DNA of 44,627 bases from Thermoplasmata archaeon (GCA_036395115.1 DASWDU010000020.1:1-44627), one strand, 5' to 3'. Shown: positions 14,855 to 27,042, counted from the stretch's first letter. Notes: a model not told the origin generated them from the letters alone. A program made the numbers and translations.

Positions 14855-16084
14855 ATGGAGCCGACGCCGACAGAACCGCCCCGCCTCCGTCGCCGGATCG
14901 GGTTCTCCGAGATCCCGCGGAACGTCCGGCGGATCGTCTACGCGAACGTCCTCGGCGGGGTGGGCTTCGGGTACCTGATCGTCTTCATCACGGCGTACCT
15001 CCCGCAGATCGGGATCGGGCCCGAGGTCGTCGGCCTGATCCTCGGCGCGCAGGGCATTTCGATGGTCGTGACTGCGATCCCGCTCGGCTGGTACTCGGAT
15101 CGCCGCGGCCGGAAAGGGCTCCTGCTGGCCGCGTCCGTCATCCTCCCGCCATCCCTGCTTGTGTTCGCCTTCACGACGGACCTGCGATGGCTCGTCCTCG
15201 CCTCCGTCGCCGCCGGCGTCGGCGAAGGCGCCTTCCTCTCGACGTGGAACGCGATCATCGCGGACCAGACGACGGCGGCGCAGCGGAACGCGGCGTTCTC
15301 CCTGTCGTTCGTCCTCAACAACGTCGCGGTCGGAGCGGGCTTCGCGCTGCCGCTCGCCTTCCCGGCCCTCCAGGCATGGTCGAGGCTCGACAGCCACACG
15401 ATCCACGTCGGCGCGCTCGTCGTGACCGACGCCTTCGGATTCGTCATGCCCGTCGCCTTCGCGGTCCTGCTGCGGGGCTACCGGGAGACATTGCGGGTGC
15501 GGGAGGGGCGGCCGAAATGGATGGACTGGAAGCCGATGCTGAAATTCTCGGGCGCGAACGGCCTCATCGGCCTCGGGGCGGGGTTCTTCATCCCGCTCGT
15601 GCCGACGTGGCTCTTCCTGAAATTCGGTGTGCCGGACACGTGGAGTGGGCCGCTGCTCGCCCTGTCCAACGTCACGATCGGGATCGCGGCGATCGGGAGC
15701 GCAGCGCTCGCGAAGCGATACGGCTCCGTGCGGGCAATCGTCATGGCCCAGGGGCTCTCGACGATCTTCCTGCTGAGCCTCGCCTTCGCCACGAACGCGG
15801 TCGTCGCGGGCGGGCTGTACCTCATCCGCGCGGCGCTGATGAACATGTCCGCGCCGATCGGGGACTCGTTCCTCATGGGGATCGTCGCGCCGGAACAGAG
15901 GGGGCTGGCGAGCGCGGTGAACTCGATCATCTGGCGCCTCCCGAACAGCGTGACGACGGTCCTCGGCGGCGTATTGATGGGCGCGGGCTACTACGACCTC
16001 CCGATCTTCCTCGCGACCGCGTTCTATGTGTCGTCGATCACATCCTTCTTCGTCATGTTCCGTAACTTGAAGCCGACGACGTGA
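14855..16084 (+). CDS. Major facilitator superfamily transporter
   Basis: A 409-aa MFS permease with about 12 hydrophobic segments. The loop between helices 2 and 3 carries motif A, GWYSDRRGRKG, and a second-half loop has KRYGSVRA. An N-terminal soluble piece (MEPTPTEPPRLRRRIGF) precedes helix 1. The open frame reaches back to 14675, but that extension is not membrane-like; the ATG at 14855, within GACGATGGAG, gives the expected N-terminus. It is divergent from the oxidoreductase operon. The substrate cannot be assigned; drug or metabolite efflux are both possible. Confidence 0.88.
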   Translation: MEPTPTEPPRLRRRIGFSEIPRNVRRIVYANVLGGVGFGYLIVFITAYLPQIGIGPEVVGLILGAQGISMVVTAIPLGWYSDRRGRKGLLLAASVILPPSLLVFAFTTDLRWLVLASVAAGVGEGAFLSTWNAIIADQTTAAQRNAAFSLSFVLNNVAVGAGFALPLAFPALQAWSRLDSHTIHVGALVVTDAFGFVMPVAFAVLLRGYRETLRVREGRPKWMDWKPMLKFSGANGLIGLGAGFFIPLVPTWLFLKFGVPDTWSGPLLALSNVTIGIAAIGSAALAKRYGSVRAIVMAQGLSTIFLLSLAFATNAVVAGGLYLIRAALMNMSAPIGDSFLMGIVAPEQRGLASAVNSIIWRLPNSVTTVLGGVLMGAGYYDLPIFLATAFYVSSITSFFVMFRNLKPTT

Positions 16085-16158
16085 GCCCGGACACCTGCTC
16101 GCGGACAAGTTGTTCTACCCGGTTCGGAGGAAGGACCGACAGCAGTGGATTGTGATGA

Positions 16159-17007
16159 GTGGTGTGGACCGCGGATAACCCGAGCAATGTTCATTTGGGA
16201 TACCGCGCTGCTACGAGTGTGGACATTACCTGGTGGAGGAACCCTTGGCACTTCATCCCTGTGCTTTGGATAGTTTCGGGTGTCATCGCGGCCGCTGTGT
16301 GGGCCTATCAATTCCTGCATCCGGAACTTGACCTCGCCCTTGTCTTCGCCCTTCCGGTCGCTGTCTTCACCGCTTCCTTCAGTGCGAGCATGGGTATGTG
16401 GCTCTACTCACACATTACTCGAGAGAGCAGAGATGCTCAGTTCAGGTTCGAACGCATCTACACACCCTTGTACGACGATTTGCAGCGAGTCATCCAAGAC
16501 TTAGACCGAGGCTTCATCGGGTCCCTTCAGAAGTGGCAGGAAATCAACGACACACATCTCAAAGTCTTCGTGGCTCAAGAAGTTGGACATGCAGTGGAAG
16601 ACCTCGTACGGGAACTTAAGACGTACCATGAGGTTTGGAACGAGGCGTATTCTGCTGCAGAGAAAATCTTGATTGATGCAACCATGCACCTGACCGACAG
16701 GGTAGGCTCCCGCAACCCCGGACCAGAAATAGTGACTGAGGTCAAAAGCAGTGGCTATCAATTCTTGTTCGATCCGAACACTACCACGTTGGACCCAAAC
16801 CGCATGACCAACATAGTCAACCGAATCGGTCAAGCTGGCTATCAGGACGCAAGGAGGCTTGCGGACGAGATGGTCAAGAAGATGAAGGAGACCCTGGTCC
16901 TGAACGGCAAGGTCGTTGCTCGGCTTCGGGAGATAGAGGCCTTGATGCCGAAAGTCGAGGCGGTCCGTGAGCTGGTACACCAACGTCTCATACGCCCGCT
17001 CTCCTGA
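16159..17007 (+). CDS. Two-helix membrane protein with a long cytoplasmic coiled-coil region
   Basis: Unrecognised 282-aa protein. Two membrane helices lie near 31-50 (FIPVLWIVSGVIAAAVWAYQ) and 58-82 (LALVFALPVAVFTASFSASMG). A predominantly alpha-helical hydrophilic region follows, with heptad-like stretches at the end (LADEMVKKMKETLVLNGKVVARL). Start codons are two GTGs in tandem at 16159. The codon and base use are visibly more AT-rich than in the genes before 16.1 kb, which suggests recent acquisition. It lies tail to tail with the DUF4145-like gene, 43 nt apart. Membrane anchors with coiled coils occur in several defence systems, but no effector domain is visible here. Confidence 0.7.
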   Translation: MVWTADNPSNVHLGYRAATSVDITWWRNPWHFIPVLWIVSGVIAAAVWAYQFLHPELDLALVFALPVAVFTASFSASMGMWLYSHITRESRDAQFRFERIYTPLYDDLQRVIQDLDRGFIGSLQKWQEINDTHLKVFVAQEVGHAVEDLVRELKTYHEVWNEAYSAAEKILIDATMHLTDRVGSRNPGPEIVTEVKSSGYQFLFDPNTTTLDPNRMTNIVNRIGQAGYQDARRLADEMVKKMKETLVLNGKVVARLREIEALMPKVEAVRELVHQRLIRPLS

Positions 17008-17050
17008 GGGAGCTTTCGTATGCGTGGCCTGCCGTACAGCCGCGACTGCA

Positions 17051-17578
17051 CTAACTAGGTAACTCCAATAGCGTCTGAAGGATGTTCGCGGCGTCCTTGA
17101 GGTCTCGTAGAGCCTCGTCCCGCGTTAGCCAGAGGCGCGCTTTAGAGATGTCGCCTTCCTGGGCAGCGGAGACCATTGCTACCTCCTGCTTTGCTGCTAC
17201 ATGGGCGATGAGGTTGCCATCCTCTTGGATTCGACCAAGAGCGGCCATCTGCTCATCGGAAAGGACTCCTCGCCTAGCTATCGCGCGTTTCATCTCTTCA
17301 AGGCGAACCGGCCGGATCCTCCCATCGTGGGTGCGCGGCGGGTTAAATCTCCACCACATACCCTTGCTCCAGTCTCTGTATAGGAAGACATAGCAAGCGG
17401 CCTCCAATGTCGCGCGGCACAGAAGCGCGGTCCCTTCGATTGCTCCTGCATCGAAGACCCGGGCCGCTTCGCCGAACAAAGTTACGCTCTGATGGAGGAT
17501 CGTCTTCTCCGGTTTGAGATGAGCCATCAAGTCTTGCAAGATCCTCTCTCCTTCTTTCGGCGGGAACTGCCCTTCCAT
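17051..17578 (-). CDS. DUF4145-like protein
   Basis: A 175-aa soluble protein that matches the layout of DUF4145 proteins: LFGEAARVFDAGAIEGTAL, then LCRATLEAACYVF, and a later helix with IQEDGNLIAHVA. The (A)HR-like and (N)xxxH-like positions in the last helix recall HEPN-type domains, to which DUF4145 is related. DUF4145 domains often accompany restriction-modification or other defence genes. The function of this copy is not known. It is lower in GC than the surrounding housekeeping genes and sits in the same block as the membrane coiled-coil protein and the broken nuclease. Confidence 0.7.
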   Translation of the reverse strand: MEGQFPPKEGERILQDLMAHLKPEKTILHQSVTLFGEAARVFDAGAIEGTALLCRATLEAACYVFLYRDWSKGMWWRFNPPRTHDGRIRPVRLEEMKRAIARRGVLSDEQMAALGRIQEDGNLIAHVAAKQEVAMVSAAQEGDISKARLWLTRDEALRDLKDAANILQTLLELPS

Positions 17579-17767
17579 GCATTGCAGAAGAGTGCTTATT
17601 ACTCATGTCTGTTTGTACAAAAATAGAGGACCGTCCTCTCCAGGTGGAACCGAGGAGCAGCTAGACTGCGAGGTTCACGCTTGGAGCGGGACTTCGGGAA
17701 GAAGTCTAAACACTTCACCGACGGTTCTCGGAATCTATATGAGCGCGCCGTCTGGCTTTGTCCACTA

Positions 17768-18150
17768 ATGAGCGACGATTCGGAAGAGTGGGAAGAACTG
17801 GTGAAGCGAGGTACGGTTGCAGCTGTGGGTGCTCTACGGAGGTTTGCAACAGAGCAAATCGCCCGGCTTGAGCGATATCAGAAACCACGCCATTCCGCGG
17901 GACGCTTCTAACCGACGAGCAGTACCAACTCCTTCTTGAACGACAGGGCGGGGTCTGCGCCATTTGCGGTGATAAGTCGAAGAGTGGACGTCTGGCAATT
18001 GACCATATCCATGGAACAACTAAGGTGCGGGGTCTCCTATGCATGGGTGCAACACGGGTTTAGGACTGTTTTAGGGATGACCCTGATCGCCTTGCCAAGG
18101 CAATGGACTACCTGAAACGGAGTGGAGAACCCAAGTCGAGAATCGGTGAG
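17768..18150 (+). pseudogene. HNH / recombination endonuclease VII-like gene, frameshifted
   Basis: An ATG at 17768 starts MSDDSEEWEELVKRG and runs in frame to HSAGRF then a stop. In another frame comes LTDEQYQLLLERQGG, then the zinc Cys pair VCAICGDK, the AIDHIHGTTKVRGLLC HNH core, and a stop. A third segment reads DDPDRLAKAMDYLKRSG. That is exactly the order of endonuclease VII-type proteins (CAIC, DHxH, GLLCxxCN, DDPxxL). Three one-base changes join everything: one G added to the GGG run near 17899-17901, one T added at GGTGC near 18045 (restoring the second zinc pair C-x2-C), and one T removed from TTTT near 18068-18071. Either it is decaying or the assembly has indel errors. The true 3' end is not clear. 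Confidence 0.7.
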
Positions 18151-18980: not shown

Positions 18981-19003
18981 GCCGGGCCGTTAGACGCCGC
19001 TGC

Positions 19004-19077
19004 GCCCCTGTAGTCTAGCTTGGATAGGACAGAGGCCTGCGGAGCCTCTGACCTGGGTTCGAATCCCAGCAGGGGCG
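19004..19077 (+). tRNA. tRNA-Arg (anticodon GCG)
   Basis: A complete cloverleaf can be drawn by hand. The acceptor stem is GCCCCTG/CAGGGGC and the D arm opens GTC...GAC. The anticodon stem is GAGGC/GCCTC with loop CTGCGGA, giving anticodon GCG (reads CGC/CGU Arg codons). The T arm is CTGGG-TTCGAAT-CCCAG, and the discriminator base is G at 19077. The 3' CCA is not encoded. No intron is visible. Confidence 0.95.
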
Positions 19078-19353
19078 TCCGCGTACGTGTGCAGGGGCTT
19101 TCGACTCGGCGAGTTCGTGACTGGGCGGGTCTCCCGCGTGTGGCACTTTTCGCGAAGGCAAGTCGCGGCAGGGCGATCCCGGTTCCGGACTTTCCGGGGA
19201 AAACGTGACAACTCAAGCCGAATTGACAACGCCGGCTATATGCAACACACGGTTGTCGGCCGCCGAGGGGACGGTATCGCACTAGTTGCGCTGGGATACG
19301 ACACCGCAGGCTTGCTCAAGGAAACTCAAATGACCTAAGGGTAGGGACGCGCT

Positions 19354-20250
19354 GTGGATTTTTATGGACCGGGTCTCGAAGAACCCTTCGCGATTGTCAA
19401 ACGGGGCATTGTCCGAACCGGAATCGTGCAGGGGCTCCTCTTCGTCGCTGGGAGTCTTCCAACAGCGATTGCGGGTGCGGTTTACGGATATTCCCCGGTC
19501 TTGGCCATCGGTGTCTTGGGACTCATTCTGAGTCTTTTTCCATTTTCGGTCGCCGTTCGCATCCATCGCAGACTACGGGGCCCGAAGGTAGCGCCGGATG
19601 GGATATACCTCCCGCTTCCGAAAGGATTCCTTGAAGGGGGATACTGGCTGCCGGCGGAAGCAATTGTCACGGCTGATCTCCACGAATCGCCGCCCGAGGC
19701 TTACGTGAGCTTCGACGTACGAACCGCACTTGGTATGCGGAGGGTCGCCATCGAGAAAGGCTTGATCGTCAGTTGGCCAGCCTTCGTCCGGGCTCTCCAT
19801 CGGCTCGGGATTACGGGCGTCCGCGCACCGCACCCACCGCGCCCTCCTTCTACATTTAAGGAATCGTCCAATCGATCGGGCCGGCGCCGATTGACCTATC
19901 TTGGTTTCGTCGGGGGCTTGGCGTATGTCATCGTGGTCGGATTTTCCCTCCGGGTGAGCCTTACGCTCGTGGCGTTTGCGTTCTCGTCGCTCGTTTCCGC
20001 CGTTGTAATCGCCATGGCGTTTTTTTCAGCCCGGCGCGTTCCTCTTCGCGTCCAAGTCGATGGACAACACGTTTCAATTCGGCTGTTCGGTCGGTCCAAG
20101 CCAGTCCGGTTGCATGTCCCGCAGATTCGAGTCGGAGCGGCTTGGGTGACGTCCTTGTCCGATGATTCACGACAGGCAACGTATGGTCCTTTGGACCCGG
20201 AAATCGTTCATCTCTTGGAGTCGATCATGGAGCAGGAGGGCGGCAGTTGA
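19354..20250 (+). CDS. Membrane protein with two hydrophobic pairs and beta-rich (possibly PH-like) soluble parts
   Basis: Unrecognised 298-aa protein, GTG start. Hydrophobic pairs lie at about 24-65 (VQGLLFVAGSLPTAIAGAVYG and PVLAIGVLGLILSLFPFSVAV) and about 190-240 (LTYLGFVGGLAYVIVVGFS and VAFAFSSLVSAVVIAMAFFS). Each pair is followed by a beta-rich section ending in a helix: YLPLPKGFLEGGYWLPAEAIVTADL and VPLRVQVDGQHVSIRLFGR. That is the layout of proteins in which a double membrane helix is followed by a small PH-like domain, here twice. It opens a five-kilobase block of similar proteins. The 276 nt upstream (19078-19353) hold no other gene that can be supported; a CTATATG box at 19229-19236 may be a promoter element. 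Confidence 0.65.
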   Translation: MDFYGPGLEEPFAIVKRGIVRTGIVQGLLFVAGSLPTAIAGAVYGYSPVLAIGVLGLILSLFPFSVAVRIHRRLRGPKVAPDGIYLPLPKGFLEGGYWLPAEAIVTADLHESPPEAYVSFDVRTALGMRRVAIEKGLIVSWPAFVRALHRLGITGVRAPHPPRPPSTFKESSNRSGRRRLTYLGFVGGLAYVIVVGFSLRVSLTLVAFAFSSLVSAVVIAMAFFSARRVPLRVQVDGQHVSIRLFGRSKPVRLHVPQIRVGAAWVTSLSDDSRQATYGPLDPEIVHLLESIMEQEGGS

Positions 20251-20472
20251 GCCTCCAGCCGTTCAGCGGTTTGTCGCGATTTCGATTAACGCGACTCCGC
20301 AAGCGCCCAATGGTTCGAATTCGTCGCGGCCTTCCTAGCGGTTAGCTTCGTCGCTTCGATGTTTGCCATGCGTTACTCAGAACTACCTGGAGTGCAGCTT
20401 CTGTCGATGATTAGCTTCGTCCTCAACATAATCGGATTCCTGGCCGCTGTTCATGAATTCGGTTTGCTGTAG
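20247..20472 (+). pseudogene. Small two-helix membrane protein, frameshifted
   Basis: A TTG at 20247 overlaps the stop of the upstream gene by 3 nt and has a GGAGG site at 20235-20239. It starts LSLQPFSGLSRFRL. In the next frame a clear membrane stretch runs WFEFVAAFLAVSFVASMFAM and LLSMISFVLNIIGFLAAV up to a stop at 20470. Removing one C from the CCC run near 20306-20308 joins the two parts into about 74 aa. If the bases are correct, only a 37-aa piece from ATG 20359 is readable. No family was recognised. Confidence 0.4.
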
Positions 20473-20505
20473 CTAAGGGGAGGTCATAGACTGAACGAAA
20501 ACCCG

Positions 20506-20937
20506 ATGGCGATGCGAATCGACGGATACCGTCGGACCCTCTACGTGGTTGGATTCGTTGGTCTCCTCGTCCTAGATCCACTTGGCACGCTCATTCTCCT
20601 TCAGATTACGAGTCGACTGATCCAAGGCCTACTGGTTGGCCTCCTGATTCTGTGCAACATGTTCGTCCTCCTGTTCATCACTTACGCTCCGACACGACTT
20701 GGCGTTCTCGGTGACAATTTCGTTGTGGTCCGGGTTCGGTGGTCTCGCAAACCGCAGGTCCAAACGATTCCCCTCTCTGAGGTACGGTCTGCAGAGCTCA
20801 CCCGTGGAATGGCGGGCATAGCCCATCTCGCAATTACTATGAAGACTGGACGTAGGGTTCGTATCGGCTTCCTTGATGGAACTCTGGCCTCTGAACTGGC
20901 ATCAGCATTCAATCCCGCTCGCGTTCCCGTATCGTGA
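20506..20937 (+). CDS. Small membrane protein with C-terminal beta-rich (possibly PH-like) domain
   Basis: Unrecognised 143-aa protein. Two hydrophobic helices, LYVVGFVGLLVLDPLGTLIL and LLVGLLILCNMFVLLFITY, are followed by VLGDNFVVVRVRWSR, IPLSEVRSAELT, LAITMKTGRRVRIGFLDG and a final helix. The last ~75 residues have the strand pattern of bacterial PH-type domains with 'IPLSEVRS' in the place such proteins have an 'I-x-x-x-x-I' strand. Assignment is by pattern only. ATG at 20506 is followed by a second ATG two codons later. Confidence 0.6.
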   Translation: MAMRIDGYRRTLYVVGFVGLLVLDPLGTLILLQITSRLIQGLLVGLLILCNMFVLLFITYAPTRLGVLGDNFVVVRVRWSRKPQVQTIPLSEVRSAELTRGMAGIAHLAITMKTGRRVRIGFLDGTLASELASAFNPARVPVS

Positions 20938-20960
20938 TTCTCAAGGTCGAGGTTGTGTAG

Positions 20961-21599
20961 CGCGAGTTCTTCGGCTCCGGACAGTCCACGTTCGACGTCA
21001 CGTCCGCGTACGGTCCGTTCGTCCTCGGCGTCAATGCGGTCGTCGTGCCGAGGTCGATCTTCCTCGACTCGAAGCTCCGGGCCGACTTCGATGCGGGCAC
21101 GTTCGTCCCGCTGACCGACGCGACCCTGTACGGCGAGGACCTCGGACAGACGAGCGTCTCGGAGAGCGTGATGAACGTCATCGCGGTGTCCCTGGCCGGC
21201 TCGGACGCGTACAACGTCCTGAGCCGGTTGCTGCGGAACGCGACGGACGTCCAGGTGTACTCGTACGTCGACCTCACCTCGTACGTCCTCCTGGCGAACC
21301 TGCCGTACGACGTCGTGCGCATCCTGCCGTGGGCCAAGGTGACGAACGGCGCGACGGGCGCGGCGCCGGACGGCATGCCGGGCTTCGCGAACGTCCTCGT
21401 GCAGCTCGGCCAGATGTTCTACGACGTCCTCGTCGCCTTGGGCACGTTCCTCGTGAACCTGGCGGAGGCGATCGTGGACTGGGGGATGAAGGCGCTCGGG
21501 GCCGTGGGGACGGATGCTGCAGAAGGTTCCTCCTCAGGCACTTCCTCCCTCGCCGCGATGCCTTTAAGACCGTCATGGACCATCGGAACGGCGGCATGA
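20961..21599 (+). pseudogene. Truncated copy 1 of an unrecognised alpha-helical protein family
   Basis: Frame opens right after a stop at 20958 with REFFGSGQSTFDVTSAYG and has no usable ATG; the first possible start is GTG 21045, inside the conserved part. It aligns over most of its length with the gene at 23802-24404, sharing PRSIFLDSKL, DATLYGEDLGQ, VYSYVDLTSYV, LPYDVVRILPWAKVT and the amphipathic helix GTFLVNLAEAIVDWGMKALG. After ALGAV the two diverge completely. The missing start and altered end suggest a truncated copy; N-terminal residues before 21045 still match copy 2 only loosely (TFDV/EFDL). Function unknown. Confidence 0.55.
21048..21508 (+). repeat. Direct repeat, copy 1 (partner at 23856-24340)
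   Basis: A coding segment shared with a second copy about 2.8 kb downstream. It begins with 31 identical bases (21048-21078 versus 23856-23886) and stays highly alike through the end, where the GTFLVNLAEAI coding segment matches at nearly every base. The middle is more diverged. This pattern suggests duplication with later gene conversion. Confidence 0.75.
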
Positions 21600-21913
21600 G
21601 GGACTACCGAAAGATCGCGGAGGATTTTGCCCTCCACCTCAAGGCGAAGTATGGCGAGAGGATTGAGCGGGTCATCTTGTTCGGGTCCGTGGCCCGCGGA
21701 GACTACCGGGAGGACTCTGACGTGGACCTGATCGTCGTGGGACGCGGCGACCGTTTGGCACTTCAGGGGGAGCTCGCCGCGGACTCCGTGCGGCTGCTCC
21801 TCGAGACGGGCGTCCTCGTCACCCCCATGGCATTCACGCAGGAAGAGATGGGACGGGTCGACCGGACGTTGTTCGGGCGCACCGTGGCCTCCGAGGGCGT
21901 TGTCCTTGCCTGA
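21596..21913 (+). CDS. MNT-type minimal nucleotidyltransferase
   Basis: A 105-aa protein of the pol-beta superfamily. It carries GSVARGDYREDSDVDLIVV, the GS-x10-DxD signature with both catalytic aspartates, and ends at TGA 21911. Starts at ATG 21596 (or 21575); a TTTAAG box at 21562-21567 sits about 30 nt ahead and supports 21596. It is directly followed by a HEPN gene with a 14-nt overlap, the usual MNT-HEPN arrangement. In characterised pairs (MntA-HepT) the MNT protein adds nucleotides to the HEPN toxin and silences it, so this would be the antitoxin. Confidence 0.9.
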   Translation: MRDYRKIAEDFALHLKAKYGERIERVILFGSVARGDYREDSDVDLIVVGRGDRLALQGELAADSVRLLLETGVLVTPMAFTQEEMGRVDRTLFGRTVASEGVVLA

Positions 21914-22283
21914 ATCCGAGGACCTCCTGAAAGCCGCCCAAGAGTCGCTCGAGGCGGCAAGGCTCCTCGCATCCCGCGGTTTTCATCCGGACGCCGTGAG
22001 CCGTGCGTACTACGCGATCGTGTACGCCGCCCGTGCCGCGCTCGCAAGCCGCGGCGTTGCCGCGAAGACCCACGGCGGGACGCTCCAACGCTTCGGAGAA
22101 CTGTTCGTCGCGCCCGGCCTCCTCTCCTCCGATCTCACCACGGCCTTCGGGAAGGCGATGGCGATTCGAAATCGGGCGGATTACTCGACGGCGGTGCGTC
22201 CCGGGAGGGAAGACTCCGAGACGGTACTCGGGGACGCCGCGCGATTTGTCGACGCCGTGACTCGCCTTCTCTCTGGGAAGTGA
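21900..22283 (+). CDS. HEPN domain protein (partner of the MNT protein)
   Basis: A 127-aa all-alpha protein with the COG1895-type core SRAYYAIVYAARAALASRG, then KTHGGTLQRFGELFV and a last helix with RNRADYSTAV. This matches HEPN proteins paired with MNT genes. In canonical ribonuclease HEPN domains, R-x4-6-H is the active site; here the pattern around RADY is not an obvious R-x4-H, so nuclease activity is open. The start is TTG 21900 (or TTG 21906). Its stop overlaps the GTG of the next small gene (GTGA). Together these form a likely toxin-antitoxin or stress module. Confidence 0.88.
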   Translation: MSLPESEDLLKAAQESLEAARLLASRGFHPDAVSRAYYAIVYAARAALASRGVAAKTHGGTLQRFGELFVAPGLLSSDLTTAFGKAMAIRNRADYSTAVRPGREDSETVLGDAARFVDAVTRLLSGK

Positions 22284-22450
22284 CCGCTGAGATGCGAGGA
22301 CGTCCCGCTTCGCCCAGCCCAACCCGAACGCGACGGACGATCGTCTCGAAGTCGCAGGGTGGCATCTTCTTGGCGTCAATCGGTTTTGCAGTAGGCGCGT
22401 TCGCATGGTACTCCGCTACCGCCTATCTTCAGCAGCATCCGCTGAGGTGA
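22280..22450 (+). CDS. Small single-helix membrane protein, coupled to the HEPN gene
   Basis: A 56-aa open frame starting GTG 22280, which overlaps the HEPN stop by 4 nt (GTGA); an ATG at 22292 is a second choice. A basic N-terminus (RGRPASPSPTRTRR) is followed by one hydrophobic helix (GGIFLASIGFAVGAFAWY). The overlap suggests translation coupled to the HEPN protein. No family recognised; below the length usually annotated automatically. Confidence 0.45.
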   Translation: MTAEMRGRPASPSPTRTRRTIVSKSQGGIFLASIGFAVGAFAWYSATAYLQQHPLR

Positions 22451-22454
22451 TGCC

Positions 22455-23125
22455 GTGGATGGGAGCGGGCGAGGGCATCGGAGCACGGCCGGGCAAGGCG
22501 AGATAATCTCCAACACGCCCGCGGTCGTCTCTTTCGGTGCCGTCGGACTCGTGTTCGCCTTTGCTGCAATCTGGGCATTCTCTCAGGGCCCTGTACGAAC
22601 GGGGAACTTCGGCGGACTCCTCCTACTATGTCGTGCTTTTTCTGCTTGCGGCGATGGCGCTTGCCCTCTTCGTCGCGGTCTTCCAATTCCCCTACTCCCT
22701 GGAGGTGTCCAGCGAAAGTTTGGAGTTGAGGTATGTTCACCGGCGGGAGGAGATACCGGCGGCCCGAATCTCGACGATTGAAGTCCGTGGTGGGGCGGTG
22801 GGCCGTAACTGTTGGATTGTGTTCGTAGACGGAGAAAGCAAGTCGATTGGATCAAGGAGCCGACGTCTGCCGGATATCTGGCGCCGTTTCCATCCACCAA
22901 TGCAGGCTCGGGGTGTCCAGAATCACTTTCAAGATCGATGACGCGGGGCATGACGTTCCCCTGTGCAACTGCCAGAACCTTGCCCGCCGAATACCCGACT
23001 CAGCCAGGCGTGCGCACTTTGCCTTCTCGAAAATGGTCCGTTGGGTGTACGGTGTCCGAGTGGTCGGGGTCGTTGGAATCATCCTCACGGTGGGGCAAGT
23101 AGTGGCCAGATGGACGGGTAATTAA
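22455..23125 (+). pseudogene. Membrane protein with beta-rich (possibly PH-like) domain, read in three frames
   Basis: Three overlapping partial frames make one plausible protein. The first (GTG 22455) holds SFGAVGLVFAFAAIWAF. The second holds YYVVLFLLAAMALALFVAVFQ and a domain ending IWRRFHPPMQAR. The third holds SRITFKIDDAGHDVP and the last helix GVRVVGVVGIILTVGQVV, ending at 23125. Removing one G from each of two GGGG runs (22596-22599 and 22911-22916) joins the three frames into about 222 aa with three membrane helices. Each join keeps the hydrophobic and beta pattern intact. Two independent one-base errors in GGGG runs are more likely assembly errors than decay, but both fit. Confidence 0.6.
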
Positions 23126-23127
23126 TC

Positions 23128-23670
23128 ATGGCGTTTTCCTATCGGGAAACCAAAGACCGAAGTCTTCGGCACCTGTTCATCGTCCTGTTGGCGGTTACGA
23201 CGGCGAGCCTTGGATATGTGCTGTTCAGACTCGTTGTCAGCGGGTTTTCTCTGGTTCTTGGCGCGCTTCTGACGGGGTTCGGGATCTTGGTCGGAGCCTT
23301 TGCTCTCGGGTTTGCATTTCAACTTGCCGAGGCCCAGGCCTTTCCCGTCCTCATTGAGGGCGACCGTCTTAGCTTCCCTCGGGCAACCATTCTCGCAGTG
23401 GTCTTGGGAAGACGCGAATGGACGCATATCAGCGATGTGAAAAGGATTGAGCTGAAACTCAACCGGATCGTTCGGACGTCGGTCCGCGATTCGCAGCTTG
23501 GAACCTCATTGGAAGATGCTCAAGTTCCGACCGACGTCGTTGTGACAACTGTGAATGGAAAGGTGTACGAGAAGCACTACAATGTCCTTCGGCGGCACCA
23601 CCGTGCGCTGGCTGCAGAGACCGCCAAAGCCCTCCTCGCCTGGGCGCCGGAAAAGGTGGTGCTGAAGTGA
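23128..23670 (+). CDS. Membrane protein with beta-rich (possibly PH-like) domain
   Basis: Unrecognised 180-aa protein. Two hydrophobic helices, LFIVLLAVTTASLGYVLF and LVLGALLTGFGILVGAFALGF, are followed by AFPVLIEGDRLSFPRATI, IELKLNRIVRTS and VVTTVNGKVYEKHYNV, then a final helix rich in Ala and Leu. It has the same order as the genes at 19354, 20506 and 22455, so these appear to be diverged relatives. The ATG comes 2 nt after the preceding stop, so it is probably cotranscribed. Confidence 0.65.
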   Translation: MAFSYRETKDRSLRHLFIVLLAVTTASLGYVLFRLVVSGFSLVLGALLTGFGILVGAFALGFAFQLAEAQAFPVLIEGDRLSFPRATILAVVLGRREWTHISDVKRIELKLNRIVRTSVRDSQLGTSLEDAQVPTDVVVTTVNGKVYEKHYNVLRRHHRALAAETAKALLAWAPEKVVLK

Positions 23671-23724
23671 TGCCTCATTCTAGCCGCCGATGATCATACA
23701 TTCGGACCGGACTGAGCGGCCCTC

Positions 23725-23805
23725 GTGTCTGTCGAAATCCGGGACATCGCAAGTCCCGATCGATTCAAGGCGGCCATCGAAGCGCTAACCATCGATGATG
23801 CATGA
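23725..23805 (+). CDS. Possible 26-aa peptide overlapping the next start codon
   Basis: GTG 23725 opens a short frame (VSVEIRDIASPDRFKAAIEA...) whose TGA overlaps the ATG of the next gene by 4 nt. It could be a leader peptide that couples translation, or the remains of a longer upstream part of that gene. Nothing else in 23671-23801 can be supported. Confidence 0.25.
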   Translation: MSVEIRDIASPDRFKAAIEALTIDDA

Positions 23806-24404
23806 CCCACTCCGAGTTCGATCTCGCATCGGAATCCAGTCCATTTGTCGTTGTCCCGAGGTCGATCTTCCTCGACTCGAAGCTCCCGAAAGACCTCGAC
23901 GCCGGGACGTTCGCGCCCCTATCCGACGCGACCCTGTACGGCGAAGACCTCGGCCAAGCGAAGGTCTCGGAGAGCGTCGCCGGGACGGTGGCGAAGTCCC
24001 TGTCCAGCGTCGAGGCGAAGAACGTCCTCGACCGCCTCCTGCAGAACGCGACGAACGTCCTCGTGTACTCGTACGTCGACGTGACGTCCTACGTCGTCCT
24101 GATGAACCTTCCCGCGGACGTCGTGAAGATCCTCCCCTGGGCCTCCGTGACGATCAGCCCGACCGGCGCGATGCCGCAGGACTTCTGGCAGAAGATCGGC
24201 GCGGCGGAGTCGGCCATTGTCAACTCTCTCGTGCAGCTCGGACAGATGATCAACGACGGACTCGTCGCCATCGGCACGTTCCTCGTCAACCTGGCGGAGG
24301 CGATCGCGGACTGGGAGATGAAGGCGCTCGGGGCCGTGTGGAACACGGTCGTCGCCGTCGCGCAGCCGGCAGCCCACGTTGTGCAGCACCTGGCCTCCCG
24401 CTAG
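23802..24404 (+). CDS. Unrecognised alpha-helical protein, copy 2
   Basis: A 200-aa protein that starts MTHSEFDLASESSPFVV and then follows copy 1 (20961-21599): PRSIFLDSKLPKDLDAG, DATLYGEDLGQ, VYSYVDVTSYVVLMNLPADV, and a long amphipathic helix LVQLGQMINDGLVAIGTFLVNLAE ending near DWEMKALG. This segment is too weakly hydrophobic for a normal membrane helix but could lie on a membrane. GC content is as high as the host's, unlike the membrane-protein genes around it. No domain recognised. The ATG is at the 4-nt overlap with a possible upstream peptide. Confidence 0.65.
   Translation: MTHSEFDLASESSPFVVVPRSIFLDSKLPKDLDAGTFAPLSDATLYGEDLGQAKVSESVAGTVAKSLSSVEAKNVLDRLLQNATNVLVYSYVDVTSYVVLMNLPADVVKILPWASVTISPTGAMPQDFWQKIGAAESAIVNSLVQLGQMINDGLVAIGTFLVNLAEAIADWEMKALGAVWNTVVAVAQPAAHVVQHLASR
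23856..24340 (+). repeat. Direct repeat, copy 2 (partner at 21048-21508)
   Basis: Second copy of the coding repeat; identical over its first 31 bases and highly alike near its end. Confidence 0.75.
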
Positions 24405-24465: not shown

Positions 24466-27042
24466 GTGCTCCGCGGCTATCTGACACCTCTATCGATCGC
24501 GGTCTTCCTCCTGGCCTCGGCCGTCTTGGTTCCCCATCCTGGAGGAGTCCTGCCGATCCCGATATCTTCGGCATCGACCGCTGCGGATCCCCTCGTCCAA
24601 TCCGAGTTGAGTGCTCGCGATTCTCGGCCCGCGGATCCGCTTGTCATCGCGGATTCGAGCGGGCCTGTCGGCCCGAGAGCCGCGGTCCCCGTCACGTCGT
24701 TCGAAGGCCTGATCTTCGGCGCGAACGGACCGTACACGAACCGCTACGTCCCGCCGGACGTCCAAGTCGCGGCCGGGCCGAATCACGTCGTCGAGATGGT
24801 GAACGCCCTCGGCCGCATCTGGACGAAACAGGGGACGGTCCTCGAGACCTTCACGCTCCACACGTTCTTCGGAGTCGCATCGACGGATTTCATCAGCGAC
24901 CCGAAGGTGCGGTTCGACGGCTCGGGCGGTCGGTGGTTCGCCACGATCGCCGACGTCACGACGGCGAGCATCCTCCTCGAGGTCTCGACCTCGGACGATC
25001 CGACGTCGACCTGGAATCCGTACGCGTTCCTCGCGTCCGCCGGCTGCGCCGATCAACCGCTCCTCGGCATTAGCGACGACACGGTCGTCCTCTCGGCGAA
25101 CGATTTCTCCTCCTGCACCGTGCGGAATCCGTCGTACGTTGGAGTCGAGTACTGGGTCGTGAACAAGGCGGACCTCCTCGGCGGCGCGACGGCGCGGTTC
25201 TCCCGCTTCGGCCCGGACAGTTCCCGCTTCTCGCTCCAGCCGGCCCACGCCTTCTCGTCGACGACGGCGTACCTCGTCACCGCAGGGAGTGGCCTGACGA
25301 CGATCCTCGCGGTGTTCGCGGTGACGGGCGTTCCGCCGGGGACCGTCTCCATCGCCGAACACGACCTCGCGATCCGCCCGACCGCCGGCCCGCCGAGCGC
25401 CTCGCAAGCCGGCTCGAACGGTGCCCTCGACACGGGGGACGCGCGGGTGGAGGACGCCTTCTGGGACGCGGGTCGCCTCTGGGTCGCGTTGAACGACGCC
25501 TGCATCCCGTCGGGGGACGTCGGCACGCGGTCGTGCGTCCGCCTGATCGAGGTCGACACGGGGACGTGGGCGGTCGAACAAGACTTCGACTTCGGGATCA
25601 CGGACAAGTACGTCTTCTACCCGGCGTTGCGCACGGACGGCGGCGGCCGGCTGTTCGTCGTCTTCGGATTTTCGTCGTCGACCGAATACCCGGGCGTCAT
25701 GGTCGCCATCCGATCGGCGTCGGATCCGCCGGATTCGCTCGGAGCGCCGCAAGTCATCCGGAGAGGCGATGGGCCGGTGGTGACCGGATGCTCCGGATCG
25801 AGGTGCCGCTACGGCGACTACTTCGGCGCCGGCCGGGATCCTTCGGACCCGGAGATCGTATGGGTCGCCGGAGAGTACGGCGCGACGGCCGGGTGGGCGA
25901 CGTACATCGCGGCCATGTCGGCGACGGTCCGGCTGACCGTGAGCTACGCGCTGGTGGGCGGCGGCACCGGCTTCCGGGCGCCGACGTTCACGTACGTGCA
26001 GGATGGCGTGACGAAGACCGCGTCGCTCACCGCCACGCAGACGACGTACGCGCTCGACGGCGGAACCCCGTGGTCGGTGCCGCAAATGCTCCCGGGGTCG
26101 GGCGCGAGCGAACGATGGGCGACGGACTCGAACGGGACGGGGAACGCGACCGCGTCGCTGACGATCGTCTTCACGTACGCGCATCAGTACCTCGAGACCT
26201 TCGCGTACCGCGTGACCGGCGGGGGCGCAGGCTTCGGCGCGCCGAACGCGTCGTACATGGGCGTCGGACGTGCGTTCGAATCGACTGCGAACTTCACGGA
26301 CTGGGCGGATGCGGGCTCGTCGTACGCGTTCGCGCCCTCGCTCCCGGGATCGAACGCGACCGAGCGGTGGTACGTCGATCCGTCGACGGCCGGCGGAACC
26401 GTTTCCGGCTCGGGGACCGTCGATGTCCTCTACCGGCATCAGGCGTTCGTGACCTTCGACCTGCAGGGACCGGCGGGCGGGACCGTGTCGCCGGGCACGG
26501 GATGGTACGACGTCGGCGCGTCGATCTCGCCGTCCGTCGCGGGGCCGGCGGGATGGGCCGCGGGCGAATGGATCGGTTCCGGACCGGGCGCCTATTCCGG
26601 GCCCGAGCCGACGCCGGCGCTGACGGTGAGCGGCCCCTTCTCCGAGACCGCCATCCTGTTCCCAGGCCTGACGATTGCCGCGGGATTCGGCGGCGTGTCG
26701 TATAGATACGAGGGCGGAACCGGGACGGTGCCGGGCGGCTCGTCCCGGACGATTTACGTTCGGCCGGGGACCATCGTCTCCCTCGTCGAGACATCGGCGA
26801 GCGCGTTCACCTTCGCGGGCTGGAGCGGCGGGACCTCGGGCATGCAGTCGAACGTCTCCGTGACGATCGAGGTTCCCACGCAGGTGAGGGCGAACTTCGC
26901 GCTGACGACGAGCGCCGCAATCGCCCTTGTCTCCCTTTTCGGGGGGCTGGTCCTCGGTCTCGTGCTGCTCGTCGGGGTCGTGCGGCGGAGGCGGCGGACG
27001 TCCGGTCCTCCGCCGACGGTGCCTCCGCCTCCTTCCCCTTAA
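24466..27042 (+). CDS. Large secreted, membrane-anchored surface protein
   Basis: An 858-aa protein with a signal peptide (MLRGYLTPLSIAVFLLASAVLV). A long N-terminal beta-rich section (about 75-485) follows, with PPDVQVAAGPNHVVEMVN, DPKVRFDGSGGRWF and repeated strands that look like a sialidase/propeller-type fold. Next come three related beta-units, two of them marked by GGGTGF and GGGAGF, and a bacterial-repeat unit with AGWSGGTSGMQ. A last helix (AAIALVSLFGGLVLGLVLLVGVV) is followed by RRRRR and a Pro-rich end. The GTG start has a box A about 28 nt upstream. Role probably cell-surface binding or enzymatic; no active site could be assigned. Confidence 0.8.
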   Translation: MLRGYLTPLSIAVFLLASAVLVPHPGGVLPIPISSASTAADPLVQSELSARDSRPADPLVIADSSGPVGPRAAVPVTSFEGLIFGANGPYTNRYVPPDVQVAAGPNHVVEMVNALGRIWTKQGTVLETFTLHTFFGVASTDFISDPKVRFDGSGGRWFATIADVTTASILLEVSTSDDPTSTWNPYAFLASAGCADQPLLGISDDTVVLSANDFSSCTVRNPSYVGVEYWVVNKADLLGGATARFSRFGPDSSRFSLQPAHAFSSTTAYLVTAGSGLTTILAVFAVTGVPPGTVSIAEHDLAIRPTAGPPSASQAGSNGALDTGDARVEDAFWDAGRLWVALNDACIPSGDVGTRSCVRLIEVDTGTWAVEQDFDFGITDKYVFYPALRTDGGGRLFVVFGFSSSTEYPGVMVAIRSASDPPDSLGAPQVIRRGDGPVVTGCSGSRCRYGDYFGAGRDPSDPEIVWVAGEYGATAGWATYIAAMSATVRLTVSYALVGGGTGFRAPTFTYVQDGVTKTASLTATQTTYALDGGTPWSVPQMLPGSGASERWATDSNGTGNATASLTIVFTYAHQYLETFAYRVTGGGAGFGAPNASYMGVGRAFESTANFTDWADAGSSYAFAPSLPGSNATERWYVDPSTAGGTVSGSGTVDVLYRHQAFVTFDLQGPAGGTVSPGTGWYDVGASISPSVAGPAGWAAGEWIGSGPGAYSGPEPTPALTVSGPFSETAILFPGLTIAAGFGGVSYRYEGGTGTVPGGSSRTIYVRPGTIVSLVETSASAFTFAGWSGGTSGMQSNVSVTIEVPTQVRANFALTTSAAIALVSLFGGLVLGLVLLVGVVRRRRRTSGPPPTVPPPPSP

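What the first reader, a model, noticed from the sequence alone, without database searches (positions are those of the whole stretch)
19354..24404. Cluster of PH-like membrane proteins woven with an MNT/HEPN pair and duplicated helical proteins: a possible undescribed system
Over 5 kb all genes are on the + strand with tiny gaps or overlaps. At least four encode two or more membrane helices followed by a small beta-rich domain (19354, 20506, 22455, 23128). Between them lie an MNT-HEPN module with a coupled single-helix protein, and two copies of a helical family with an amphipathic segment. A membrane module linked to a nucleotide-transfer toxin/antitoxin would fit a stress or antiviral response, or an effector-with-immunity array. 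No domain gives a firm function.
Basis: inference. Interest (0 to 1): 0.62.

Follow-up and report, generated by a model that had tools for sequence, protein, structure and literature searches.

The report
Worn-out archaeal toxin-and-immunity gene array
This stretch of an archaeal genome looks like a decayed collection of self-protection genes and broken toxin pieces from a weapon system that related archaea still carry intact: giant secreted proteins whose swappable tips probably damage the membranes of rival cells.

Summary
The two 'duplicated helical proteins' (20961-21599, 23802-24404) are truncated copies of a conserved ~190-residue module absent from Pfam and NCBIfam. In 16 of 17 carriers of 1000 residues or more, the module begins 297-489 residues from the C-terminus of huge surface proteins (1026-3610 aa), followed by a variable multi-helix tail; elsewhere it heads standalone 340-560 aa cassettes. 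In relatives, 31 of 45 modules with an intact tail are followed, overlapping or within 29 bp, by a 96-282 aa two/three-helix membrane gene, against 27 of 353 other genes (p about 1e-19). The window's membrane/beta-rich genes fit this partner class: orphan immunity genes, one frameshifted, two reduced to remnants. The PH-like guess holds for the one soluble domain that could be modelled (20506). The MNT-HEPN pair is a guest, present in this array only. The module occurs in 52 of 400 genomes of the class. Toxicity, membrane action and immunity are inferred; nothing was tested. The nearest described kind is the archaeal polymorphic toxin system; this family differs in its module, membrane-type tails and PH-like partners. 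Whether a 2019 archaeal survey already lists it could not be checked.

The parts
19354..20250 (+). Orphan membrane protein, 298 aa, two helix-pair plus beta-rich units in tandem; candidate (double) immunity protein
   Evidence: no Pfam/NCBIfam/PADLOC hit; no credible homologue in 99 relatives; GC 0.58. Same general layout as a 272-aa gene in the G011 array, but no detectable sequence similarity.
20280..20466 (+). Remnant of a two-helix membrane protein gene, open frame without an upstream start codon
   Evidence: Frame translation RDSASAQWFEFVAAFLAVSF...AAVHEFGLL*
20506..20937 (+). Candidate immunity protein, 143 aa: two membrane helices plus PH-like domain
   Evidence: AlphaFold2 single-sequence model, pLDDT 70.8, pTM 0.37; Foldseek matches dominated by PH/PTB folds; weak bPH_2 E 0.13 (17); weak match E 0.047 to the gene behind an intact cassette in G142 (71)
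20961..21599 (+). Toxin-cassette remnant 1: conserved module whose toxin tail is lost and whose 3' end runs out of homology into the MNT start
   Evidence: Module profile E 2e-78; 21285-21510 is 94.7% identical to C7 8978-8753 and similarity stops at 21510
21596..21913 (+). MNT-type nucleotidyltransferase (guest toxin-antitoxin pair, not part of the array)
   Evidence: PF01909 E 9e-11 (17); motif GSVARGDYREDSDVD (102); MntA model 30.5 bits, below its cut-off of 60 (91)
21900..22283 (+). HEPN protein (guest)
   Evidence: PF05168 E 2e-15 (17); no HEPN homologue in any other array stretch (72)
22280..22450 (+). Short single-helix frame, 56 aa, start overlapping HEPN; role unclear
22455..22941 (+). 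Broken immunity-type gene: helix 1 in the 22455 frame, helix 2 plus beta-rich part in the 22537 frame
   Evidence: weak bPH_10 E 0.021 (17); GC 0.59
23128..23670 (+). Candidate immunity protein, 180 aa, helical membrane part plus beta-rich part
   Evidence: Helices confident, soluble part not modelled (93); weak match E 0.051 to the immunity-position gene behind a 3203-aa carrier in G027 (71)
23690..23800 (+). 3' remnant of an immunity gene directly before module 2
   Evidence: 91% identical over 23 aa to a G008 two-helix gene; DNA 23693-23996 aligns through into the module in the same order in G008
23802..24404 (+). Toxin-cassette remnant 2: conserved module, toxin tail lost
   Evidence: Module profile E 8e-94 (51); DNA similarity to three C7 copies (81.7-92.8%) stops at 24365 or earlier (71)
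24466..27042 (+). Large secreted protein, neighbour conserved next to the G011 array
   Evidence: 67% DNA identity over 2.26 kb to G011 (71); phmmer E 3e-298 (72); weak InlB B-repeat domain (92)

Best explanation
The region is a decaying cassette array of a polymorphic-toxin-like system of archaea. In intact loci a giant secreted protein carries a conserved C-terminal module and, at its tip, a hydrophobic multi-helix tail; the next gene encodes a two-helix membrane protein, at least some with a PH-like domain. Inferred mechanism: the carrier is displayed or released, the module helps the tail enter a rival's membrane, and the tail inserts and makes it leak. The partner sits in the producer's own membrane and binds and blocks the matching tail. 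New tails arrive as cassettes (module + tail + partner) that recombine through the shared module, leaving older partners behind. In this window the tails are gone and orphan partner genes remain, some intact and some broken; the intact ones may still protect against relatives' toxins. Shown: module family, its C-terminal position, the 3' membrane partner, cassette arrays, pairing of tails and partners in the closest pairs, remnants in the window, PH-like fold of one protein. Inferred: toxicity, membrane leakage, immunity, secretion, and the assignment of the window's ORFan genes to the partner class.
For: Module within the last 297-489 aa in 16 of 17 carriers of 1000 aa or more. 31 of 45 modules with an intact tail are followed by a 96-282 aa 2-3 helix gene with gaps -59 to +29 bp, against 27 of 353 background genes, Fisher p 1e-19. 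Standalone cassette arrays in G078, G071, G099, G183, G375 and own contig C7. Carriers have Ig, fn3, TSP3, laminin-G and lectin repeats and N-terminal hydrophobic segments. Tail and partner similarity go together: 4 shared links against 0.51 expected, p 0.004; 4 of the 5 links with E below 1e-8. Cassette remnants between small membrane genes in G011. Window module DNA is mosaic with C7 and ends at the module/tail boundary. Candidate immunity genes have GC 0.55-0.59 against 0.65-0.68 for modules. PH-like fold of 20506.
Against: No known toxin domain in the tails; membrane action rests only on hydrophobicity. The window has no intact cassette, and no N-part of a carrier was found in its genome (67), though the C7 array runs off a contig end. 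The three intact window genes have no credible homologue in 99 relatives (94-98), so they are assigned by position and architecture. The pairing test rests on few close pairs and does not correct for relatedness. Only one PH-like domain was modelled, at moderate confidence and without an alignment. Partners are not uniformly PH-like (the three-helix gene behind the G008 cassette shows no such domain). The gene caller and helix predictor were simple scripts.
Confidence: 0.72

Rival explanations
1. Self/non-self recognition or adhesion system, not a weapon: a variable surface protein anchored in the membrane by its multi-helix tail, with a matching small membrane partner, as one of the readings proposed for the Thermococcales VARTIG loci.
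For: Carriers are built of adhesion-type repeats; VARTIG loci also pair variable proteins with membrane proteins and show no toxin domain (PMC8416519); no toxicity data.
Against: Standalone cassettes without carrier, cassette remnants between orphan partner genes and the immediate 3' partner order are the polymorphic-toxin pattern (PMC3482391).
Confidence: 0.17
2. Anchor plus assembly factor: the tail is only a membrane anchor and the two-helix protein its insertion or quality-control factor.
For: Tails are multi-helix and lie at the extreme C-terminus; the partner is a membrane protein.
Against: An anchor would not need standalone cassettes, degraded copies or strong divergence of tail and partner between relatives.
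Confidence: 0.07
3. One reading: a stress or antiviral module in which the membrane proteins are linked to the MNT/HEPN pair.
For: Physical interleaving; overlapping genes 21596-22450.
Against: No HEPN and one weak MNT homologue in the other array stretches; other MNT and HEPN genes cluster elsewhere in the genome; membrane proteins have no PADLOC match better than E 0.018.
Confidence: 0.03

Closest known systems
Polymorphic toxin systems (Zhang et al. 2012, PMC3482391)
   Same: Large multi-domain secreted protein, variable C-terminal tip, 3' immunity-position gene, standalone cassettes, strings of leftover immunity genes
   Different: No known toxin domain recognised in the tails; conserved module has no Pfam family; partners are two-helix membrane proteins, some PH-like; [quoted passage not shown]
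Archaeal polymorphic toxin systems (Makarova et al. 2019, mBio)
   Same: Same general kind, in archaea
   Different: Paper not held here, so overlap with its families is unknown; a later paper by the same group says DNases and RNases are the commonest toxins there (PMC8416519)
CDI ionophore toxins and CdiI (PMC11630599)
   Same: Membrane-targeting helical C-terminal toxin with a separate entry domain; small two-helix membrane immunity proteins, highly polymorphic, cognate-specific
   Different: No CdiA/CdiB parts seen; archaeal; partner has an added beta-rich or PH-like domain; works-like analogy only
VARTIG (PMC8416519)
   Same: Archaeal giant secreted protein with variable C-terminus followed by variable genes including membrane proteins
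   Different: Here the variable part is a multi-helix tail, not an Ig domain; other archaea; no shared sequence shown
MntA/HepT-type toxin-antitoxin
   Same: The 21596-22283 pair: overlapping nucleotidyltransferase and HEPN genes
   Different: A guest in the array, below the MntA model cut-off

Membership tests
Polymorphic toxin system | Large multi-domain carrier with repeats and signal for secretion | tested here: met
   In relatives: 17 carriers of 1000-3610 aa, Ig/fn3/TSP3/LamG/lectin repeats, several with an N-terminal hydrophobic segment. No carrier found in the window's own assembly (67).
Polymorphic toxin system | Variable C-terminal tip joined to a conserved region | tested here: met
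   Module conserved, tails diverge; DNA similarity stops at the boundary
Polymorphic toxin system | Immunity gene directly 3' of the toxin gene | tested here: met
   Position and size class met in relatives, 31 of 45 against 27 of 353; in the window itself not met, because both modules are truncated
Polymorphic toxin system | Standalone cassettes and leftover immunity genes | tested here: met
Polymorphic toxin system | Tail and partner change together (cognate pairs) | tested here: inconclusive
   4 shared links against 0.51 expected, p 0.004, few pairs, relatedness not corrected
Polymorphic toxin system | Tail is toxic and partner neutralises it | not testable with these tools
   No known toxin domain found; needs expression assays
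Polyimmunity locus (PMC3482391) | Immunity genes never interrupted by toxin genes or cassettes | tested here: not met
   Two cassette remnants lie among the genes
Bacterial PH domain families (Pfam bPH_2, 6, 7, 10) | Match over the curated cut-off | tested here: not met
   20506: bPH_2 12.9 bits against 22; in the survey of 27 proteins the bPH families had E-values of 0.01 or more (58)
PH-like fold | Fold similarity to PH/PTB superfamily structures | tested here: met
   For 20506 only: Foldseek probabilities up to 1.00, best E 0.015, none below 0.001; 23128 not modelled (93)
MntA/HepT toxin-antitoxin | Nucleotidyltransferase motif and adjacent HEPN gene | tested here: met
   GSVARGDYREDSDVD; PF05168 E 2e-15; overlapping genes
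MntA/HepT toxin-antitoxin | NCBIfam MntA model over cut-off | tested here: not met
   30.5 bits against 60
VARTIG | Hypervariable C-terminal Ig domain in Thermococcales | tested here: not met
   Variable part is a multi-helix tail

The most novel reading that the evidence does not exclude
An undescribed, class-wide archaeal antagonism system in which giant adhesin-like proteins deliver membrane-disrupting tips and two-helix membrane proteins with PH-like domains give cognate immunity: a membrane-acting branch of archaeal polymorphic toxins, most of whose known toxins are said to be nucleases.
Probability: 0.45. Interest if true: 0.72.

Novelty: new variant of a known kind. Interest (0 to 1): 0.55.

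Why it matters
Archaeal weapons against other cells are little known: the 2021 paper read here says predicted archaeal polymorphic toxin systems had not been characterised experimentally (PMC8416519). If right, this gives a concrete family, in about one genome in eight of the class sampled, with intact carrier, tail and partner genes to test. It also suggests a function for hypervariable two-helix/PH-like membrane proteins that otherwise look like orphans, and shows how an array decays into orphan immunity genes.

Tried and rejected
MNT/HEPN as a core part: rejected after the neighbourhood survey and genome counts. Window membrane proteins in other genomes: no credible homologues; the weak hits lie in unrelated neighbourhoods. 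Viral contigs: no relatives of 20506 or 23128; the deep module alignment was too diverse to search there. Profile-profile comparison of window genes with immunity subfamilies gave nothing. A mixed alignment for folding (A4) was poor, so single sequences were folded. A carrier N-part in the own genome was not found. Makarova et al. 2019 is not in the library.

Full report
What was checked. The window is one whole contig (C20) of a 2.40-Mb, 50-contig assembly, 98% complete. All genes of the finding are on the + strand between a tRNA-Arg (19003-19080) and a large secreted-protein gene at 24466. Gaps between consecutive genes run from overlaps to 255 bp.

The helical copies are the key. They are 67% identical over 161 aa. 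Three more copies lie at the end of contig C7 of the same genome, two of them running on into 350-430 aa proteins with several predicted membrane helices. A search of relatives found the same module in other genera, in open frames up to 2426 aa. A profile from 13 copies then matched 52 of 400 genomes of the class, in 26 of 105 genera, and 24 of 390 genomes sampled across the phylum, including three outside the class. Weak matches in these searches may partly reflect hydrophobic composition, so the counts are approximate.

Where the module sits. In 17 proteins of 1000 aa or more, 16 have the module start within the last 297-489 residues; the exception (G070) has a phosphoesterase-like region after it, judged by eye. 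Carriers contain Ig, fibronectin, TSP3, laminin-G and lectin-type repeats. Elsewhere the module heads standalone cassettes. No Pfam family is a convincing match to the module, and the two window copies have no NCBIfam family either.

What follows it. Among modules with an intact multi-helix tail, 31 of 45 are followed by a same-strand gene of 96-282 aa with 2-3 helices, with gaps of -59 to +29 bp; 27 of 353 other genes in the same stretches have such a follower (odds ratio 27, p 1e-19). Gene calling and helix counting were simple scripts, the same for both groups. Similar tails carry similar partners: 4 of the 5 strongest tail links are also partner links, and overall 4 against 0.51 expected (p 0.004). 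This test does not correct for relatedness.

The window as remains. Neither window copy has a tail. DNA similarity to the C7 copies stops at 21510 and 24365, the module/tail boundary, and 21285-21510 is 94.7% identical to a C7 copy while the rest of copy 1 is more distant, a mosaic. The 3' end of an immunity-type gene survives just before copy 2, in the same order as in G008. A two-helix remnant lies at about 20280-20466, and the 22455 gene is split over two frames. The genus-mate G011 shows the same picture with a carrier still in place: carrier N-part, then small membrane genes with two cassette remnants between them, then a homologue of the window's 24466 gene.

The PH-like question. A single-sequence AlphaFold2 model of 20506 has two confident helices, then five strands and a helix (pLDDT 70.8, pTM 0.37). 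Foldseek against the PDB returns mostly PH and PTB domains (GRK2, CCM2, Rtt106, TFIIH p62, Sin1, DAPP1), with probabilities mostly 0.92-1.00 among the top 40 and best E 0.015; none is below 0.001. The 23128 soluble part could not be modelled. Pfam PH families match several partners weakly; 20506 and 22537 are below the cut-off.

MNT/HEPN. The pair overlaps the 3' end of module copy 1 and has the sequence marks of a nucleotidyltransferase/HEPN toxin-antitoxin. No HEPN and only one weak MNT homologue occur in the other array stretches. The genome has 4 HEPN and 12 MNT domains, many of them on contig C5. It is a guest.

Explanation. The layout meets the genomic marks of polymorphic toxin systems as set out in PMC3482391: constant carrier, variable tip, toxin-then-immunity order, standalone cassettes, and leftover immunity genes from past replacements. 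The membrane action is inferred from the hydrophobic tails and membrane partners, by analogy with CDI ionophores and their two-helix immunity proteins (PMC11630599). Toxicity and immunity were not tested. The window's three intact membrane genes have no credible homologues in 99 relatives; that fits fast-diverging immunity genes but also means their assignment rests on place and architecture.

Novelty. This is a kind already described, including in archaea; the family, its membrane-type tails and the PH-like partners appear to be a new variant. The main archaeal survey (Makarova et al. 2019, mBio, known from memory and from citations in PMC8416519) could not be read, so prior listing of this family is possible.

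Noticed in passing
G070 contig C38 (L026), 1211-aa frame: Here the module is followed not by a short tail but by about 900 residues, including a region that reads like a calcineurin-type phosphoesterase; the frame runs off the contig.
   Followed up: no
L025:1371-3053 (G099): A cassette whose tail is cut and joined in frame to an immunity-type protein 71% identical to the partner of the intact G071 cassette; looks like a deletion fusion.
   Followed up: partly
window 24466-27042 and L034:12362-14992: A large secreted protein with a C-terminal membrane segment sits next to the array in two genus members although the other flanks differ; relation to the system unknown.
   Followed up: partly
G000 contig C5:18000-29500: Cluster of three HEPN and five MNT domains within about 12 kb, a toxin-antitoxin hotspot.
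   Followed up: no
L034:8342-8944: Another two-helix membrane protein with a soluble part directly behind the withheld part of the G011 carrier; position of its cognate partner.
   Followed up: no
window 16001-18000: Lowest G+C of the window (0.55 against 0.60-0.71 elsewhere), upstream of adenylate kinase; a possible separate insertion.
   Followed up: no
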